From assembly GCF_024807615.1 (NCBI RefSeq), contig NZ_JANUCJ010000002.1, positions 186,001-250,000 of the forward strand: a stretch of DNA of 64,000 bases, in the 5' to 3' direction. This stretch comes from Tsukamurella ocularis. GTDB lineage: Bacteria > Actinomycetota > Actinomycetes > Mycobacteriales > Mycobacteriaceae. Each line of letters begins with the position of its first letter. Position 1 is the first letter of the stretch. The notes beneath the pieces are model-generated. The model saw only the letters and a list, made by a program, of their open reading frames with translations. It was not told the DNA's origin and did no database searches. This document shows, in pieces, positions 3,509 through 43,085 of this stretch. Made by a program: the position numbers and the translations under genes.

Positions 3509-4954
3509 CTAGCGCGCGGGGATGTTCCCGTCCATGTCCTCCAGCGACTTGCCCTTGGTCTCGGGCACGAACCGGTAGACGAACAGCAGCGACAGCAACG
3601 CGAACGTCGCGTACAGCCCGTAGGCCAGCGCGAGGTTGCCCTCCATCTTCGGGAAGGTCACGGTGATGGCCCAGTTGGCGGCCCACTGCGCGGCCGCAGC
3701 GAGCGAGAGCGCCGCGCCCCGGATGCGGTTCGGGAACATCTCGCCCAGTAACACCCACACCACCGGGCCCCAGCTGACGCCGAAGAAGATCACGAACAGG
3801 TTCGCCGCGACGAGGGCGAGCACGCCGACCACGCCGGTGAGCGAGGGCTTCCCGTCGATGATCTCGGCGGTGCTGAAGCAGACCGCCATCGTGGCGAGCG
3901 AGACGGCCATGCCGATCGAGCCGATGAGCAGCAGCGGCCGGCGCCCGATCCGATCCACCAGCATGATGGCGACGATGGTGACGATGACGTTGACGATCGA
4001 GGTGAAGACGCTGATCAGATTCGACTGCGACTCCTCGAAGCCGACGGCCTGCCACAGCATGTTCGAGTAGTAGAAGATCACGTTGATGCCCACGGCCTGC
4101 TGGAAGATCGACAGCAACAGGCCCACCCAGACGATCGGGTAGATACCGCCGCCGGGCCGAACCAGGTCGCGCCACGAGTGCTTCTCCTCGCCCGCGAGGC
4201 TCTCCTCGATGCGGGTGACCGTGATGTCCATGTTCTTCTCGCCGAGCAGCATCGTGAGGACCTTGCGGGCCTCGGGGATGCGGTGCCGGGACACCAAGTA
4301 GCGCGGCGACTCGGGGATCATGGTGGACGACACGCCGTAGACGATCGCCGGAATCGCCATGACGAGGAACATCCACCGCCATGCCTCCAGCCCGAACCAC
4401 AGGTCGTTCGATGCGCCGCCCGCGAGGGAGGCCAGCAGCCAGTCGATAAGCAGTGAGAGGAAGATGCCGAGCACGATCGCCATCTGCTGCAGCGACCCCA
4501 GCCGCCCGCGGATCCGGGCCGGCGAGACCTCCGCGATGTAGGCGGGGGCGATCACCGACGCCACGCCGACGCCGACGCCGCCGACCACGCGGAACAGGAT
4601 GAGGATCCAGGTGTGGGTGGCGAAGGCGCAGCCGATGGCGCTGAGGAAGAACAGCACCGCCGCGATCTGCATGACGCGCAGGCGGCCGATCCGGTCCGCG
4701 ATGCGGCCGGCCGTCATCGCACCCGCGGCGGCGCCCAGCAGCGCGGAGGCGACGGCGAAGCCGAGCGTGTAGCCGTGGATGTCGAAGCGGCCCTCGATGG
4801 CCTTCGTGGCGCCGTTGATGACGGCGCTGTCGTAGCCGAAGAGGAGGCCACCCATCGCGGCGACGATCGCGATCTGGACGACGCGGCTGCTGTTGCCGTC
4901 GCCCTCCTCGAAGATCGAGGGCCCATCGGCCGTGGTGCCGCCGCCGTGCGTCAT
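3509..4954 (-). CDS. MFS sugar porter
   Basis: This is a 481-residue inner-membrane transporter of the sugar porter branch of the MFS, probably a proton/sugar symporter. Diagnostic motifs are GRIADRIGRLRVM after TM2, PESPRYL at the end of the first half, DRIGRRPLLL between TM8 and TM9, and PETKGKSLE at the C-terminus. Twelve hydrophobic segments are apparent around a central loop of about 60 residues. The sugar is not predictable; glucose or another hexose is likely. It lies 21 nt downstream of the peptidase gene on the same strand and is probably co-transcribed with it. Confidence 0.88.
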   Translation of the reverse strand: MTHGGGTTADGPSIFEEGDGNSSRVVQIAIVAAMGGLLFGYDSAVINGATKAIEGRFDIHGYTLGFAVASALLGAAAGAMTAGRIADRIGRLRVMQIAAVLFFLSAIGCAFATHTWILILFRVVGGVGVGVASVIAPAYIAEVSPARIRGRLGSLQQMAIVLGIFLSLLIDWLLASLAGGASNDLWFGLEAWRWMFLVMAIPAIVYGVSSTMIPESPRYLVSRHRIPEARKVLTMLLGEKNMDITVTRIEESLAGEEKHSWRDLVRPGGGIYPIVWVGLLLSIFQQAVGINVIFYYSNMLWQAVGFEESQSNLISVFTSIVNVIVTIVAIMLVDRIGRRPLLLIGSIGMAVSLATMAVCFSTAEIIDGKPSLTGVVGVLALVAANLFVIFFGVSWGPVVWVLLGEMFPNRIRGAALSLAAAAQWAANWAITVTFPKMEGNLALAYGLYATFALLSLLFVYRFVPETKGKSLEDMDGNIPAR

Positions 4955-4975
4955 GATGCCTCCGCTGTGTCGCTC

Positions 4976-6100
4976 CTAGAGGATCGTCAAGCTGTGGGGC
5001 CTCGTGTTCAGTGGCTCGCAGCCGTCCTCGGTGACGATGACGATATCCTCGATCCGCGCTCCCCATCGGCCACTGAAGTAGATTCCCGGCTCGATCGAGA
5101 AGGCCATGCCCGGTTCGACCGGAATGTCGTTGCCCGCAACGATGTAGGGCTCCTCGTGGACCGACAGCCCGATCCCGTGCCCGGTGCGGTGGACGAAGAA
5201 CTCCCCCAGTCCGGCGTCGGCGAGCAGATCGCGGCCCGCGGCGTCGATGGACTCGGCGCTCACGCCCGGCCGCACGGCGTCGACGGAGGCACGCTGGGCC
5301 CGCTCGAGCAGCGCGTACTGCTCCAGGATCTGTGCCGACGGCTCACCCATGGCGTAGGTGCGGGTGCAGTCCGAGTTGTACCCCGAGGCGAGCGGGCCGC
5401 CGATGTCGACGACGACCACGTCGCCGGCCTCGACCACGCGGTCCGAGACTTCGTGGTGCGGGTCGGCGCCGTGCGGGCCCGATCCCACGATGATGAACGC
5501 GGCCTCGGTGTGGCCCTCCTCGACGATGGCGGCGGCGATGTCGTCGGCCACCTCTCGCTCCGTGCGCCCGACCTTGAGGAAGTCGCCGACGCGGGCGTGG
5601 ACACGGTCGATCGCGGCGCCCGCGGCCCGCAGCTCGTCGAGCTCGGCGGCGTCCTTGATCATCCGCAGCCGGCGCAGGACTTCGGTCGCCAGGCGCACGC
5701 TCAGGCCCCGGTCGAGCAGCGGCACGAGGTGCAGCGCGGGCACGGCATCGGCCACGGCCACCGTCGACGGACCGGACAGGAGGCCCAGGACCAGGGCGTA
5801 CGGGTCGTCACCGTCGACCCAGTCGTGGACGGCGACCTCGACCCCGGCCGCGGGCAGTCCGGGCACCGAGGAGTCCTTGAGGATCGCCAGCTCGAGGCGC
5901 GGTACCACCAAGCCGAAGCCGGCATCCGTGACCACGAGAGCGGTGAGGCGCTCGAAGGATTCGCTGACGATGCCGGTGAGGTACGCGAGATCGGGCCCGG
6001 GCGTGATGACGAGCGGAGTGCCGGCCGCGGCCGCGAGCTGCTGGGCCCGGGTGAGACGGGTCGCGTACACCGAGGCGGGAAAGGACTGGGGGTTACTCAT
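4976..6100 (-). CDS. M24 Xaa-Pro dipeptidase/aminopeptidase (PepE/PepQ type)
   Basis: This cytosolic metallopeptidase should cleave Xaa-Pro bonds. The 374-residue protein has an N-terminal creatinase-like domain and a C-terminal pita-bread domain with the expected metal ligands: the Asp pair in VVVVDIGG and NSDCTRTY, His in GHGIGLSVHEEP, Glu in FSIEPGIY and Glu in RIEDIVIV. I chose the ATG at 6100 (MSNPQSFPASVYATRL), which gives the mycobacterial length; 16 further in-frame upstream codons would overlap the divergent exonuclease gene. The position next to a 5'-3' exonuclease matches Rv2089c-Rv2090. Confidence 0.9.
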   Translation of the reverse strand: MSNPQSFPASVYATRLTRAQQLAAAAGTPLVITPGPDLAYLTGIVSESFERLTALVVTDAGFGLVVPRLELAILKDSSVPGLPAAGVEVAVHDWVDGDDPYALVLGLLSGPSTVAVADAVPALHLVPLLDRGLSVRLATEVLRRLRMIKDAAELDELRAAGAAIDRVHARVGDFLKVGRTEREVADDIAAAIVEEGHTEAAFIIVGSGPHGADPHHEVSDRVVEAGDVVVVDIGGPLASGYNSDCTRTYAMGEPSAQILEQYALLERAQRASVDAVRPGVSAESIDAAGRDLLADAGLGEFFVHRTGHGIGLSVHEEPYIVAGNDIPVEPGMAFSIEPGIYFSGRWGARIEDIVIVTEDGCEPLNTRPHSLTIL

Positions 6101-6117
6101 GATCCGATTGTGACACG

Positions 6118-7071
6118 ATGATTCCCGTGACGAACGACGCGCGCCCACTGATGCTGCTCGACTCCGCCGGGCTCTGGTTCCGGGCCTTCTACGCGATCCC
6201 CGACAAGGTGAAGGCCGACGACGGCCGCTCGGTCAACGCGCTGCGCGGCTTCCTCGACATGACCTCGCAGCTGATCACCACGCATCGGCCGGGACGGCTC
6301 GTGGCGTGCCTCGACCTGGACTGGCGGCCCGCTTTCCGGGTGGAGCTGCTGCCCACGTACAAGACCCACCGCGTGGCGGAGGAGGGCGACGGCAGTGCAG
6401 AGGAGGTGCCCGACACCCTCTCGCCCCAGGTGGACATGATTCTCGAAGTGCTCGACGCCGTCGGGATTGCGACGGGCGGCGCCGTCGGCCTGGAGGCGGA
6501 CGACGTGCTCGGCACCCTGGCCGCGCGCGAGCAGAACGACCCGGTCATCGTGGTCTCGGGCGACCGCGACCTGTTGCAGGTGGCCGACGACACCCCGCCC
6601 GGCGTGCGGTGCCTGTACATCGGCCGCGGCATCGCCAAGGCCGAGATGTTCGGGCCGGCCGAGGTGGCGGAGAAGTACGGCCTGCCTCTGGACCGGGCCG
6701 GCGAGGCCTATGCCGAGCTCGCCCTGCTGCGCGGCGATCCGTCCGACGGGCTGCCCGGCGTGCCCGGCATCGGCGAGAAGACGGCCTCCAAACTGCTGCT
6801 GGAGTACGGCTCCCTCGCCGCGATCCGCGAGGCCGCGGCGCGGACCCCGTCGCCGCTGGCCGCCCGGGCGGCGACGTCGATCGCCGCGTCGGCGGACTAC
6901 CTCGACGCCGCCTGGGACGTGGTCTGGGTGCAGCGCGACGCGGACGTCGCGCTGTCCGGTTCCGACGCGATGCCCCGAGAAGCACGCGATCCGCAGCGCC
7001 TGGCCGAACTGGCCGAGGAACTGCGGATCGGAGCGCAGGTGGAGCGCCTGCTCGCCGCCCTCGCGGGCTGA
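6118..7071 (+). CDS. 5'-3' exonuclease, FEN-like (Rv2090-like)
   Basis: This 317-residue protein resembles the stand-alone 5' nuclease domain of DNA polymerase I and would remove 5' flaps or primers. Acidic metal-binding residues are seen in [39 protein letters not shown] and [16 protein letters not shown] helix-hairpin-helix, [17 protein letters not shown], lies near residue 215. It is divergent from the peptidase gene with only 17 bp between start codons, so the promoters must overlap or lie inside the neighbouring gene. An alternative GTG start three codons in is possible. Confidence 0.92.
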
Positions 7072-39624: not shown

Positions 39625-40869
39625 TCAGGCCGCCGCAGGTACGCCGAGCAGCGCGTCGACCGCGAGGGCGACGGCGGCCGGTGCGCCCGCATCCGGACCG
39701 CCGACGGTGACGGCCTTCTCTGCCCAGGTGTCGATCGCGGTGAGGGCGTGCGGGGTGTCGAGATCGTCCGCAAGGTAGCGCCGGACGCGTGCGATGAGCT
39801 CCGCGCCGTCCGGCGCGGACGACGCCTGGAAAGCCCGGCGCCACAGGTCCAGTCGCGCCAGCGCCCGCTGCAGTACCTCGTCGGACCACGGCCGGTCCTG
39901 CCGGTAGTGCCCCTCGAACAGGCCCAACCGGATCGCGGCCGGGTCGACGCCCGAGCGCCGCAGCTTCGAGACGAAGACGAGATTGCCACGACTCTTGGAC
40001 ATCTTCTCGCCGTCGAGGCCGATCATCGCTGCGTGCACGTAATGCCGCGCGAGGCGGCGCTCACCGGTCGCCGCCTCGACGTGTGCTGCCGAGTACTCGT
40101 GATGCGGGAAGATCAGGTCGCTGCCGCCGCCCTGGATGTCGAAAGTCGCGCCCAGGCGGTTCGCCGCGATCGCGGCGCACTCGATGTGCCACCCGGGGCG
40201 TCCGGGGCCCTGCGGCGAGGGCCACGACGGCTCGCCCGGGCGCTCGGCGCGCCACAGGATCGGGTCGATGCTGTCGCGCTTGCCCGGGCGGTCGGGGTCG
40301 CCGCCGCGTTCGGCGAAGAACGTCTCCATCGTCGCGCGGTCGTAGCCCGACTCGTAGCCGAACTGCTCCGTGGCGTCGGAGCGGTAGTAGACGTCGGGGA
40401 ACTCCGAATCGTCGACGACGTACGCCGAGCCGTTGTCCAGGAGCTTCCCGACGTACTCGACGACCTCGTCGACCGACTCGACCGCCCCAATGTAATCGCG
40501 CGGCGGGATCACCCGCAGCGCCTCCATGTCCTCGCGGAACAGGTCGGTCTCCCGGGCACCCAGGTCGCGCCAGTCGATCCCGTCGCGCTCGGCCCGCTCG
40601 AACAGCGGGTCGTCGACGTCGGTCACGTTCTGCACGTAGTGCACCTCGTGGCCGTTGTCCCGCAGCACGCGGTTGACCAGGTCGAACGCGAGGTACGTGG
40701 CGGCGTGGCCGAGGTGCGTGGCGTCGTAGGGCGTGATGCCGCAGACGTACATGCCGGCCACCGCGCCGGGGTTGACGGGGCGCACGGCCGCGTCCGACGT
40801 GTCGTAGAGGCGCAGCGGGACCGACGGTCCGGGCACGGTGGGGACGGTGGGGGTCGGCCAGGAACGCAT
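39625..40869 (-). CDS. mshC: Mycothiol ligase MshC
   Basis: MshC joins cysteine to glucosaminyl-inositol with ATP, the key step of mycothiol synthesis. The 414-residue protein equals the mycobacterial length and resembles cysteinyl-tRNA synthetase: [20 protein letters not shown] (HIGH-like motif and zinc Cys), [25 protein letters not shown], and KMSKSRGN. The shortened C-terminus without a tRNA anticodon domain separates it from CysS. The ATG at 40869 follows TAGGGT and a G-run. Its presence shows a mycothiol-making actinobacterium. Confidence 0.95.
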
Positions 40870-41011
40870 ACCCCCCACCCTATGCGCACTCATCCGGGCG
40901 TGGATTCCGGGCCGGATCGGCGGGCGGAGGCTCGCTCGCCGATCCGGCACGCGGACTGTCTGCGGCGGAAGGTGAACGAACAGCCGTCCGACGAGGGACG
41001 ATGCTGTGCGA

Positions 41012-41034
41012 CAAGAACTCTCAGCAAGTTCTTG
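41012..41034. promoter_or_regulatory. Inverted repeat upstream of the DUF692 cassette, possible operator
   Basis: CAAGAACT-N7-AGTTCTTG is a perfect 8-bp palindrome about 80 bp before the TIGR04222 start, in an otherwise featureless 247-bp gap (40870-41116). TTTGTCAAA follows near 41075. Either could bind a regulator; a weak attenuator is an alternative. Confidence 0.4.
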
Positions 41035-41116
41035 CCCCCGGTTACTAGCGGGCAGTCCGATCTACCGCCATGCTTTGTCAAACATGAAGGTCCGTCCGTC
41101 TCAGGAGGTGAATATC

Positions 41117-42034
41117 ATGTCCCGCAATCCATTCGAGAACATCCTCGGCCATCTGCTCCCCACCGAGTCGCGGTGGTTCCTGTACTGCCTGCTCGGCGGC
41201 ATCACCTTCGCCCTGACCTGGCGTTTTCTGACTGCGGTCCGGCGCCCGCCGATCGAGCACCCACCGCTCACCGTGGCGGAGATCGCCTGCCTGCGGTCGT
41301 GGCAGGCACCACTCGTCGCGACGATGGGCCTCCTCAGAGCGGGTGGGCACCTCGACGCCGACGGTCGCGCCGATCCCACGCGTCCCCTCCCGCCCGCCAC
41401 GGACGACTTCACCCGCCGGCTGCTGCACCGGCTCGACGGATCGCAGTTCTCCGTGAACCTGCTGCTTCACGACCAGCTGGTCTCGCTGCGGGACCTGGAG
41501 CATGGTCTCGCGCGGCGCGGCTACCTGCGCACGGGCGGCGAGCGCTGGCGTACCCGGTTCGGCGCGATGCCATTCGCCGCCATCGTGGTCGCGGGGGTCG
41601 TGTGCACGCCCGTGCTGATCCTGACCGGGAGTGCTCCGGCGAAGGCGCCGGTGATGGCCTTCCTCGTCCCGTCCGTACTCACGGCCGTCTTCCTCCTCCC
41701 CCCGCTCATGTCGGTGCCCCGCACTACGCGTGCGGGAAAGCGGCTCCTCGCGTCCGAGCGGGCGCGCGCGAGCTACCTCAAGCCGGCACTGCGGCCTGCC
41801 TTCGCGACGTACGGCGCCGCCGCGGTGGGGCTGTCCGTCGCCCTCTTCGGGACGGCCGCGCTCTGGCAGATCGATCCCCGATATGCCGCGGCGATGGCTG
41901 TGGCGGGCGGCACGGGCAGCGGCGGCGCCGGATCGTCCTGCGGCAGCTCCTTCACCTGTGGCGGCTCCTCCTGCAGCGGCGGCGACGGGGGTGGCTGCGG
42001 GGGATGTGGTGGCTGCGGCGGGTGCGGCGGATGA
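41117..42034 (+). CDS. TIGR04222-type membrane protein with Cys/Gly-rich tail
   Basis: This 305-residue protein has a membrane helix near the N-terminus (ESRWFLYCLLGGITFALTWR read in part), a soluble region with EIACLRSWQAPLVATMGLLR typical of TIGR04222 proteins, two central helices (about residues 150-195), and another near 245. It ends in a ~33-residue tail of Gly, Ser and seven Cys, the last four spaced as CGG repeats. AGGAGGTG lies 6 nt before the ATG at 41117. The tail looks like a modification substrate for the DUF692 enzyme that follows with an ATGA overlap. A structural or metal-binding tail is the alternative. Function of the family is not established. Confidence 0.85.
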   Translation: MSRNPFENILGHLLPTESRWFLYCLLGGITFALTWRFLTAVRRPPIEHPPLTVAEIACLRSWQAPLVATMGLLRAGGHLDADGRADPTRPLPPATDDFTRRLLHRLDGSQFSVNLLLHDQLVSLRDLEHGLARRGYLRTGGERWRTRFGAMPFAAIVVAGVVCTPVLILTGSAPAKAPVMAFLVPSVLTAVFLLPPLMSVPRTTRAGKRLLASERARASYLKPALRPAFATYGAAAVGLSVALFGTAALWQIDPRYAAAMAVAGGTGSGGAGSSCGSSFTCGGSSCSGGDGGGCGGCGGCGGCGG

Positions 42035-42885
42035 GCACCGTTGCCGCTCTCGGACCGCTCGGCCTGGGCTGGCGGCGCGAGATCGCGGGCGTCATCGCCG
42101 ACCTACGACCCGGTTTCTGCGAGGTGATCGCCGAATCGGTCCGGATCCGGCGGGGCCGAGCGCACATCGACCCGCTGCTGGCGGACCTCCGCGACCGCGG
42201 CGTGCCACTTGTGCCGCACGGCGTCGCTCTGTCGCTGGGTGGTGTGGACGAGCTCGAGCCCGAGCGGGTGCACCGTCTGGCGACCTGCGCTGAGGCCTTC
42301 GGGGCGCCGTTGGTCAGCGAGCACATCGCCTTCGTCCGTGCCGGCGGTGTCGAGGCGGGCCACCTGCTTCCGGTTCCCCGCACCCGGGAGTCGCTCGACG
42401 TGCTGGTCCGCAACATCACCCGGATGCAGGAAGCCCTACCGGTCCCGCTCGCCGTGGAGAACATCGCGGCCTTCCTGCGCTGGCCCGAGAACGAGTACAG
42501 CGAGGCGGAGTTCTTGACCGAGCTGCTCGACCGCACCGGCGCGATGCTCGTGCTGGACGTGGCGAACGTCTACGCCAACGCACTCAACCGGCGCCGCGAC
42601 CCGCACGACGAACTGGCGCGTCTGCCCGTCGACCGGATCGCCTACAGCCACGTCGCAGGCGGCTCTGAGGGCGGCGGCCGCTATCACGACACGCACACCG
42701 ACCCGGTCAACGCCGGTGTGCTCGAGCTGGTCACGGCCCTGCGGGAGCGCGCCGACGTGCCGTTCATGCTCGAGCGCGACGGTCGCTACCCGCCCACGGC
42801 CGAGCTCTTCGATGAGCTCGACGCCATCGCCGTGGCCGCCGGCTGTCCGCCGATCACCGAGGACGCGCGGAAGGAGTGGGCATGA
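42031..42885 (+). CDS. DUF692 (MNIO-type) multinuclear iron enzyme
   Basis: This 284-residue TIM-barrel protein belongs to DUF692, the family of MbnB and TglH, which use two or three irons to oxidise cysteines or peptide bonds in ribosomal peptides. Conserved ligands are present: His63 (PHGVALSLGG), His98 (SEHIAF), Glu143 (AVENIAAFL), Asp176 (LDVANVYANA), His207 (YSHVAGG), Asp220-His222 (YHDTHTDPV) and Glu248 (LERDG). It should therefore be active. It starts within the stop of the TIGR04222 gene and ends within the start of the small His-rich gene. The likely substrate is the neighbour's Cys-rich tail, which is inference from context only. Confidence 0.9.
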   Translation: MSTVAALGPLGLGWRREIAGVIADLRPGFCEVIAESVRIRRGRAHIDPLLADLRDRGVPLVPHGVALSLGGVDELEPERVHRLATCAEAFGAPLVSEHIAFVRAGGVEAGHLLPVPRTRESLDVLVRNITRMQEALPVPLAVENIAAFLRWPENEYSEAEFLTELLDRTGAMLVLDVANVYANALNRRRDPHDELARLPVDRIAYSHVAGGSEGGGRYHDTHTDPVNAGVLELVTALRERADVPFMLERDGRYPPTAELFDELDAIAVAAGCPPITEDARKEWA

Positions 42886-43085
42886 GCCTGCGGGAACGCC
42901 AGGAAGCCCTGGTCCGGGCCCTCGTCGCCGACGGTCCCGTGCCCGACGGCTTCGATCCGGACGAGGTCGCGGCCGCCGGGGCGGTGTGCCGGCACAAGCT
43001 CGACGCGCACGCGCACGCGGCGCACGCGCACGCGGCGCACGCCCAGGCGCCCCGTCGGCTGTGGTGGCTGCCGGGGCGCGGATGA
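42882..43085 (+). CDS. Small DUF692-partner protein with His/Ala repeat
   Basis: The 67-residue protein starts MSLRERQEALVRALVADGPV then PDGFDPDEVAAAGAVCRHKL, a pattern I recall from short proteins or C-terminal extensions that accompany DUF692 in actinobacteria (SCO6045-like). It may be the recognition partner, as MbnC is for MbnB. Residues 42-56 are an Ala/His run with five His, plus His38 and Cys36 next to it, so metal binding is possible. The end is PRRLWWLPGRG. The ATG overlaps the DUF692 stop; the gene closes the three-gene unit. Confidence 0.78.
   Translation: MSLRERQEALVRALVADGPVPDGFDPDEVAAAGAVCRHKLDAHAHAAHAHAAHAQAPRRLWWLPGRG
43005..43049 (+). repeat. 15-bp tandem repeat encoding AHAHA
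   Basis: Three head-to-tail copies of GCGCACGCGCACGCG lie inside the small gene; copies one and two are identical and the third has two changes. The unit is in frame, so copy number changes alter only the His/Ala run. Confidence 0.85.

What the first reader, a model, noticed from the sequence alone, without database searches (positions are those of the whole stretch)
41117..43085. Three-gene DUF692 (MNIO) cassette with a Cys/Gly-tailed membrane protein and a His-rich partner
Seen: three genes joined by two ATGA overlaps. The first ends in a ~33-residue tail with seven Cys in Gly/Ser context, the second is a DUF692 protein with all expected iron ligands, and the third is a 67-residue protein. 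Known: DUF692 enzymes such as MbnB and TglH modify Cys in ribosomal peptides and often need a small partner. Inferred: the membrane protein's tail is the substrate, so this would be a modification of a membrane-tethered, full-size protein and not of a short released peptide. The block also replaces genes found here in M. tuberculosis (cysQ region).
Basis: partly seen in the sequence, partly recalled or inferred. Interest (0 to 1): 0.82.

Follow-up and report, generated by a model that had tools for sequence, protein, structure and literature searches.

The report
Membrane-anchored cysteine tail modification cassette
Three linked genes probably make an iron enzyme, its tiny helper and a membrane protein whose cysteine-rich end the enzyme rebuilds chemically; the pairing has already been described, but the comparison here shows that the cysteine end and the helper are conserved while the membrane anchor can differ.

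Summary
The central idea is already in print: Antoine et al. 2025 (PMC12452194) propose TIGR04222 Cys tails as MNIO substrates. New here: (1) C is a shortened partner domain, present at 69 of 72 actinobacterial MNIO loci (separate or fused) and at the 80 of 80 nearest named loci; the long form has the length of a published PME-type 2 protein. C's long His/Ala repeat is specific to this strain. (2) A Cys tail accompanies 50 of 72 MNIOs, and 75 of 76 near relatives with upstream DNA. (3) The anchor differs: the window genome has a second MNIO cassette whose Cys tail hangs on a single membrane helix; anchor type changed at least twice on the MNIO tree. (5) 'Replaces cysQ' is not supported: cassette-free Tsukamurella have mshC directly beside the SCO1664-family gene. 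Chemistry and function (copper?) are inferred. New member of a known kind.

The parts
41017..41035 (+). Block conserved upstream of the cassette in Tsukamurella (ACTCTCAGCAAGTTCTTGC; consensus aACTCTCAGgAAaCTCTTGC, looks like an 11-bp-period direct repeat), possible operator or promoter element
   Evidence: Visible, with small variations, in 10 of 11 Tsukamurella upstream regions aligned; in L195 the start taken was that of the second gene copy. Only site in the own genome at up to 2 mismatches; the reversed control pattern also gave one match. Exact in the 2 Tsukamurella of 80 named loci; elsewhere upstream only with 3-4 mismatches, chance level not tested. Role inferred.
41103..41109 (+). 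Ribosome-binding site AGGAGGT of gene A
   Evidence: Sequence; GGAGGTG invariant in the 12-sequence upstream alignment
41117..42034 (+). Gene A: TIGR04222 membrane protein, 305 aa; hydrophobic segments at residues 21-39, 151-169, 179-197, 234-252; Arg-rich domain between the first two, about 45-145
   Evidence: TIGR04222 82.2 bits; hydropathy; AlphaFold2 pLDDT 84.1, residues 266-295 and 298-305 under 50
41933..42031 (+). Codons of the 33-residue Cys/Gly/Ser tail of A (residues 273-305, seven Cys, ends GCGG): proposed MNIO substrate
   Evidence: Translation; tail conserved across genera
42031..42885 (+). Gene B: MNIO (DUF692, PF05114) enzyme, 284 aa, candidate iron ligands intact
   Evidence: PF05114 258 bits; ligand columns; solved homologues 3bww and 8hci/8hi7/8hi8
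42882..43085 (+). Gene C: 67-aa short form of the MNIO partner domain (region of its first two helices), with a strain-specific His/Ala repeat
   Evidence: Partner profile built without Tsukamurella matches positions 9-49 of 154, 40 bits, E about 2e-10; alignment A3
39625..40950 (-). mshC (mycothiol ligase), left neighbour; flank only (longest ORF given)
   Evidence: TIGR03447 717 bits
43101..43877 (-). SCO1664-family gene (family name recalled), right neighbour; directly beside mshC in cassette-free Tsukamurella; flank only
   Evidence: tblastn

Best explanation
A self-contained membrane-protein modification cassette. A is a four-helix membrane protein that carries a disordered C-terminal tail of Cys-Gly/Ser repeats. 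The MNIO enzyme B, held by its partner C, oxidises those tail cysteines from the cytoplasmic side, most likely to heterocycles of the thiooxazole or oxazolone-thioamide type. The anchor then keeps the modified tail at the membrane as a metal-binding (possibly copper-binding) brush. Shown here: gene structure, family identity, intact ligands, near-constant co-occurrence of tail, MNIO and partner in close relatives, joint absence in 5 of 16 Tsukamurella genomes, and a different anchor with the same tail type and partner. Inferred: that the tail is modified, which chemistry is installed, on which side the tail ends up, and metal binding.
For: 80 of 80 named loci (the best 80 by similarity to this MNIO, hence biased to close relatives) carry the partner; 75 of 76 with upstream DNA carry a Cys-tailed TIGR04222 protein. 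Partner at 69 of 72 MNIO loci over 225 bits; Cys tail at 50 of 72 (46 TIGR04222, 4 single-helix). In 16 Tsukamurella genomes the TIGR04222 protein and its MNIO are both present in 11 and both absent in 5; four of those five show the empty site mshC-SCO1664. Of tail Cys with a next residue, 340 of 342 are followed by Gly (293) or Ser (47). The second MNIO, in 11 of 11 Tsukamurella that have it, lies beside a 1-helix Cys-tail protein and the partner. 4-helix against 1-helix needs at least 2 changes on the MNIO tree. No other gene family lies beside more than 15 of the 80 named cassettes. In G074 MNIO and tail gene both look decayed. MNIO modification of a protein over 30 kDa and recognition by a C-terminal motif are published (PMC12636315).
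Against: No modification has been measured. One clade (14 loci) keeps MNIO and partner with intact ligands but no Cys tail nearby. Of 48 TIGR04222 proteins near an MNIO in the class survey, 16 lack the tail; of 39 far from one, 10 have it (Fisher p 2e-4; p 5e-6 without family f31). The tree-corrected test has only 3 independent pairs and no power. The positive-inside rule puts the 4-helix tail outside but the single-helix tails inside, which one simple model does not explain. Nothing here ties the cassette to copper: no widely shared neighbour was found, and copper genes were not searched for by family.
Confidence: 0.7

Rival explanations
1. Classical RiPP: A's membrane domain acts as a large leader, and after modification the tail is cut off and released as a soluble peptide.
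For: MNIO products known so far are mostly peptides. The tail is disordered and C-terminal. Single-helix variants show that the membrane part can differ.
Against: No peptidase or exporter is widely shared beside the cassette: the most frequent other family is in 15 of 80 loci, and one ABC-transporter-like family (by eye) is in 11, mostly Micromonosporaceae. A membrane anchor is kept in both architectures. A cleavage motif was not tested for.
Confidence: 0.15
2. The tail works with free thiols (metal or redox binding), and the MNIO modifies something else, for example another protein.
For: A Streptomyces-like clade keeps an intact MNIO without any Cys tail nearby. Some Cys tails lie far from any MNIO: 10 of 39 far proteins, 5 of these in genomes without an MNIO hit over 200 bits, of which some are contig-edge or frame-broken cases.
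Against: Tail and MNIO are joined in 75 of 76 close relatives and absent together in the genus. The Cys tail behind a membrane helix is what the 4-helix and 1-helix proteins have in common.
Confidence: 0.12
3. The Cys/Gly tail is a low-complexity by-product of GC-rich DNA and the cassette has no joint function.
For: Such repeats vary easily; tail length and Cys number differ between relatives.
Against: Same C-terminal GCGG in 67 of 76 proteins, Cys followed by Gly/Ser in 340 of 342, recurrence over many genera, two anchor types.
Confidence: 0.03

Closest known systems
TIGR04222-MNIO gene clusters of Actinomycetota (Antoine et al. 2025, PMC12452194)
   Same: Same gene A family with C-proximal Cys in a Ser/Gly-rich segment, same enzyme family, mostly Actinomycetota; putative substrate status proposed there
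   Different: They report PME-type 2 partners for at least 10% of TIGR04222 clusters and say many appear to lack a partner. Here the partner is found at 69 of 72 and 80 of 80 loci, fused or as short as about 60 aa. Single-helix Cys-tail proteins are not in the passages and sections I read; I could not see their supplements.
PME-type 2 partner proteins (model B of that paper: Micromonospora matsumotoense WP_091237309, 158 aa)
   Same: The partner beside the MNIO in the M. matsumotoense locus L282 is 158 aa and aligns with gene C; identity of the two records was not checked by accession
   Different: Gene C keeps only the region of the first two helices (about 45 aligned residues) and has no C-terminal sheet
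ChrH/DybH/MelH MNIO subfamily with C-terminally modified proteins and lipoproteins (PMC12636315)
   Same: MNIO modifies the C-terminal end of large or membrane-bound proteins; recognition by the C-terminal motif frees the N-terminus to vary
   Different: Substrate motif CPACGMG against Cys-Gly/Ser repeats; a different MNIO subfamily (ChrH model 55 bits, cut-off 600)
Bufferins, oxazolins, fontiphorins (BufB/HvfB/FonB with DUF2063 partners)
   Same: Nearest curated MNIO models (BufB 188.6 bits, HvfB 158.3 bits); several Cys followed by Gly (EGKCG repeats, passages)
   Different: Below the BufB (310) and HvfB (360) cut-offs; substrate is a membrane protein, partner has no Pfam match

Membership tests
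MNIO / DUF692 (PF05114) | Profile match over the curated cut-off and conserved iron-ligand residues | tested here: met
   258 bits against 25; ligand columns
MNIO / DUF692 (PF05114) | Mixed-valent di-iron oxidation of substrate Cys | not testable with these tools
   Needs purified enzyme
TIGR04222 membrane proteins | NCBIfam TIGR04222 match over cut-off | tested here: met
   82.2 bits against 43
PME-type 2 MNIO partners | Gene directly follows the MNIO gene and is homologous to a published member | tested here: met
   ATGA overlap; profile from 16 non-Tsukamurella partners hits C at about 2e-10; the L282 partner is 158 aa as published for that species
PME-type 2 MNIO partners | Helical DUF2063-like fold related to solved MNIO partners | tested here: inconclusive
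Bufferin maturase system | NCBIfam BufB equivalog cut-off | tested here: not met
   188.6 against 310 bits
Bufferin maturase system | Small Sec-signal precursor of a bufferin family | tested here: not met
   A is a 305-aa protein with four hydrophobic segments and no bufferin family match; no signal-peptide program was run
RiPP (released modified peptide) | Precursor modified and cleaved to a peptide product | not testable with these tools
   Needs mass spectrometry

The most novel reading that the evidence does not exclude
A general bacterial scheme for decorating membranes with post-translationally built metal-binding tails: one MNIO-partner module, with interchangeable membrane anchors (four-helix TIGR04222 or a single helix), used twice in the same genome, with a partner reduced to a roughly 60-residue helical hairpin. 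The product is a permanently tethered, multiply modified protein and not a released peptide.
Probability: 0.4. Interest if true: 0.75.

Novelty: new member of a known kind. Interest (0 to 1): 0.48.

Why it matters
If the tail is modified in place, this is a protein-level modification that turns an ordinary membrane protein into a surface bearing several oxidised-Cys metal ligands, present in many actinobacterial genera. The genus offers natural controls (11 of 16 genomes with this cassette, 5 without, 8 of 16 with both cassettes), and the very short partner gives a minimal handle on what MNIO partners do.

Tried and rejected
(1) Covariation of tail with MNIO corrected for relatedness: the TIGR04222 tree gave only 3 independent pairs on supported branches (8 on all branches), so no conclusion; the raw Fisher p values are inflated by relatedness. 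Rows used: 87 of the 91 rows flagged over the cut-off; left out were two pieces of G126 and second pieces of G199 and G057. Rows used: 77 of those 87; left out were G199, G073, G107 (frame-broken or contig-edge) and incomplete or short matches.

(2) Conserved neighbours that could name the function: besides A, B and C, no ORF family (130 aa or more, blastp 1e-12, 5 kb each side, 80 named loci) is in more than 15 loci; the list printed was capped at the 45 largest groups. In the Streptomyces-like loci looked at in detail, hemQ-like, hemY-like and DUF4142-like genes stand nearby (names recalled from sequence, not searched).

(3) Regulator search: the upstream block has one site in the own genome; among named loci it is exact only in Tsukamurella; one literature search on MprA boxes gave a listing only and nothing usable.

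(5) The idea that the third gene is a His-rich metal chaperone was put aside: the long repeat is absent in the other Tsukamurella.

(6) Streptomyces-like Cys-less loci: searched for missed Cys-rich Gly/Ser ORFs within 3.5 kb on the coding strand; none convincing.

(7) Label slip in the MNIO tree: G162 was labelled 'other' although its TIGR04222 protein has an 8-Cys tail; this does not touch the 1-helix or Cys-less groups.

Full report
WHAT IS THERE. At 41117-43085 three genes overlap by ATGA at 42031-42034 and 42882-42885. A is a 305-aa TIGR04222 membrane protein (82.2 bits, cut-off 43), B a 284-aa MNIO/DUF692 enzyme (PF05114, 258 bits), C a 67-aa protein without a family. The last 33 residues of A hold seven Cys. 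Of 12 candidate ligand positions of B, 10 are invariant over 72 actinobacterial MNIOs. The nearest curated MNIO models are BufB and HvfB, both well under their cut-offs.

PRIOR WORK. Antoine et al. 2025 (PMC12452194; outline with abstract, passages on TIGR04222, sections 17 and 18) already describe TIGR04222 membrane proteins, mostly of Actinomycetota, often next to MNIOs, with unstructured C-terminal Ser/Gly-rich segments interspersed with Cys, as putative MNIO substrates. They note that more than a quarter lack C-proximal Cys and that a third of genomes with TIGR04222 genes lack an MNIO. Chen et al. 2025 (PMC12636315; abstract and sections 9, 10, 13) show MNIO modification at the C-terminus of a 34-kDa protein and on lipoproteins, with recognition by the C-terminal motif. 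So neither the pairing nor the modification of a full-size or membrane-bound protein is new in kind. In the library held, searches for TIGR04222, for MNIO with actinobacterial or membrane terms, and for bufferin/Actinomycetota listed no experimental study of a TIGR04222 cassette that I could recognise from titles and abstract starts; subscription papers are mostly missing there.

THE TAIL. In the 80 named loci, 76 have upstream DNA and 75 of these have a TIGR04222 protein with a Cys-bearing Gly/Ser tail; L275 is the exception, and in L239 the TIGR04222 gene is split over two frames. Of 76 such proteins scored, 67 end GCGG; 340 of 342 tail Cys with a next residue are followed by Gly or Ser. In 16 Tsukamurella genomes the TIGR04222 protein and its MNIO are together present in 11 and together absent in 5, G006 among them at 93% completeness. 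In four of the five cassette-free genomes mshC stands directly beside the SCO1664-family gene, so within the genus the cassette is a discrete present/absent unit and does not stand in for cysQ. Elsewhere the cassette sits at other places: mshC was found within 5 kb in 2 of 80 named loci, both Tsukamurella.

RESULTS AGAINST. In the class survey (246 genomes; only 11 candidates per genome were scored for TIGR04222, so counts are lower bounds) 87 TIGR04222 proteins gave: near an MNIO with tail 32, near without 16, far with tail 10, far without 29 (Fisher p 2e-4; without family f31 25/3/10/22, p 5e-6). The tree-corrected test has no power. The 14 f31 MNIOs without a Cys tail nearby form one clade (SH-aLRT 95) nested inside Cys-tailed relatives, two of which (G189, G198) still show a Cys-tailed and a Cys-less copy side by side. 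Their MNIO ligands are intact, so that clade's enzyme should have another substrate or a distal one. A few of those genomes have a distant TIGR04222 protein with a single Cys in a Gly-rich C-terminus; this was not followed. Of the 72 MNIO loci, 22 have no Cys-tailed TIGR04222 or listed single-helix protein (12 Cys-less TIGR04222, 10 without TIGR04222; some at contig ends).

THE ANCHOR DIFFERS. The second MNIO of the window genome (G000:C3:108128-108862, locus L002) is followed by a 94-aa protein with one N-terminal hydrophobic helix, an Arg-rich stretch and a Ser/Gly tail with Cys, and then by the partner domain. All 11 Tsukamurella loci of this second MNIO have such a single-helix Cys-tail protein and the partner (E 2e-18 to 2e-13). 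Similar proteins take the place of TIGR04222 in four f30 loci and in G106, and lie a few kb downstream of the TIGR04222 cassette in L218 (Mycolicibacterium) and L220 (Mycobacterium). On the MNIO tree (88 rows, quick method) 4-helix against 1-helix needs at least two changes; the two 1-helix groups lie in separate supported clades; the direction of change is not shown. What stays constant is MNIO, partner and Cys tail. In G074, within the f30 1-helix clade, the MNIO match lacks its first 107 residues and the neighbouring tail gene looks frame-broken with no Cys in its tail frame.

TOPOLOGY PUZZLE. In 54 of 70 TIGR04222 proteins hydropathy gives four helices (11 gave five, 5 gave three). In the 54, the 115-residue and 37-residue loops carry 6.3 and 5.5 Lys/Arg near the membrane against 0.3-1.6 elsewhere, so the large domain should be cytoplasmic and the tail outside. 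The published text describes large periplasmic domains and a periplasmic tail. The single-helix proteins have no Lys/Arg before and 4-8 in the 20 residues after the helix, which predicts a cytoplasmic tail; there the latest possible start codon was used, so N-terminal charge may be undercounted (G273 has one Lys with the start shown). Either modified tails work on both sides, or one prediction is wrong. The model of A has high confidence up to about residue 255 and a disordered tail.

MECHANISM, MOST LIKELY. The tail emerges last from the ribosome. B, held with C, oxidises tail Cys while they are still reachable from the cytoplasm, and the anchor retains the product. For HvfB/FonB-type enzymes, 5-thiooxazole formation on Cys of EGKCG repeats and copper binding by such products are reported (passages); the Cys-Gly context here is compatible. 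The chemistry and copper binding in this cassette are inference.

VERDICT. Real, widespread and well conserved among close relatives; a new member of a published kind, with useful new detail on the partner and on anchor exchange.

Noticed in passing
Locus L002 (G000:C3:106628-110362), tail gene at 1057-1341 on the - strand: A second MNIO cassette in the same genome: MNIO, 94-aa single-helix Ser/Gly/Cys-tail protein, partner domain; an aminotransferase-like gene and a ferredoxin-like gene lie upstream (names recalled from sequence).
   Followed up: yes
Window 41017-41035: Conserved direct-repeat-like block upstream of the cassette in Tsukamurella, single site in the own genome; regulator unknown.
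   Followed up: partly
L099, L101, L102, L106, L109-L111, L113, L114, L117, L119, L173, L174, L176: Streptomyces-like clade with MNIO and partner in one open frame, intact ligands, but no Cys tail nearby; its substrate is unknown.
   Followed up: partly
L144, L162, L167, L170 (distant TIGR04222 genes): TIGR04222 proteins far from the MNIO with a single Cys in a Gly-rich C-terminus, in genomes of the Cys-less clade: possible substrates in trans.
   Followed up: no
L179 (G281:C141), ORF 4851-6206 on the - strand: A larger protein of unknown domain content ending in a Cys/Gly tail upstream of an MNIO-partner gene: a possible third anchor type.
   Followed up: no
L188 (G074:C1): MNIO match lacking its first 107 residues beside an apparently frame-broken, Cys-less tail gene and a retained partner: apparent joint decay.
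   Followed up: partly
L218 8110-8367 and L220 8239-8499: Additional single-helix Cys-tail proteins a few kb downstream of the TIGR04222 cassette in Mycolicibacterium/Mycobacterium.
   Followed up: no
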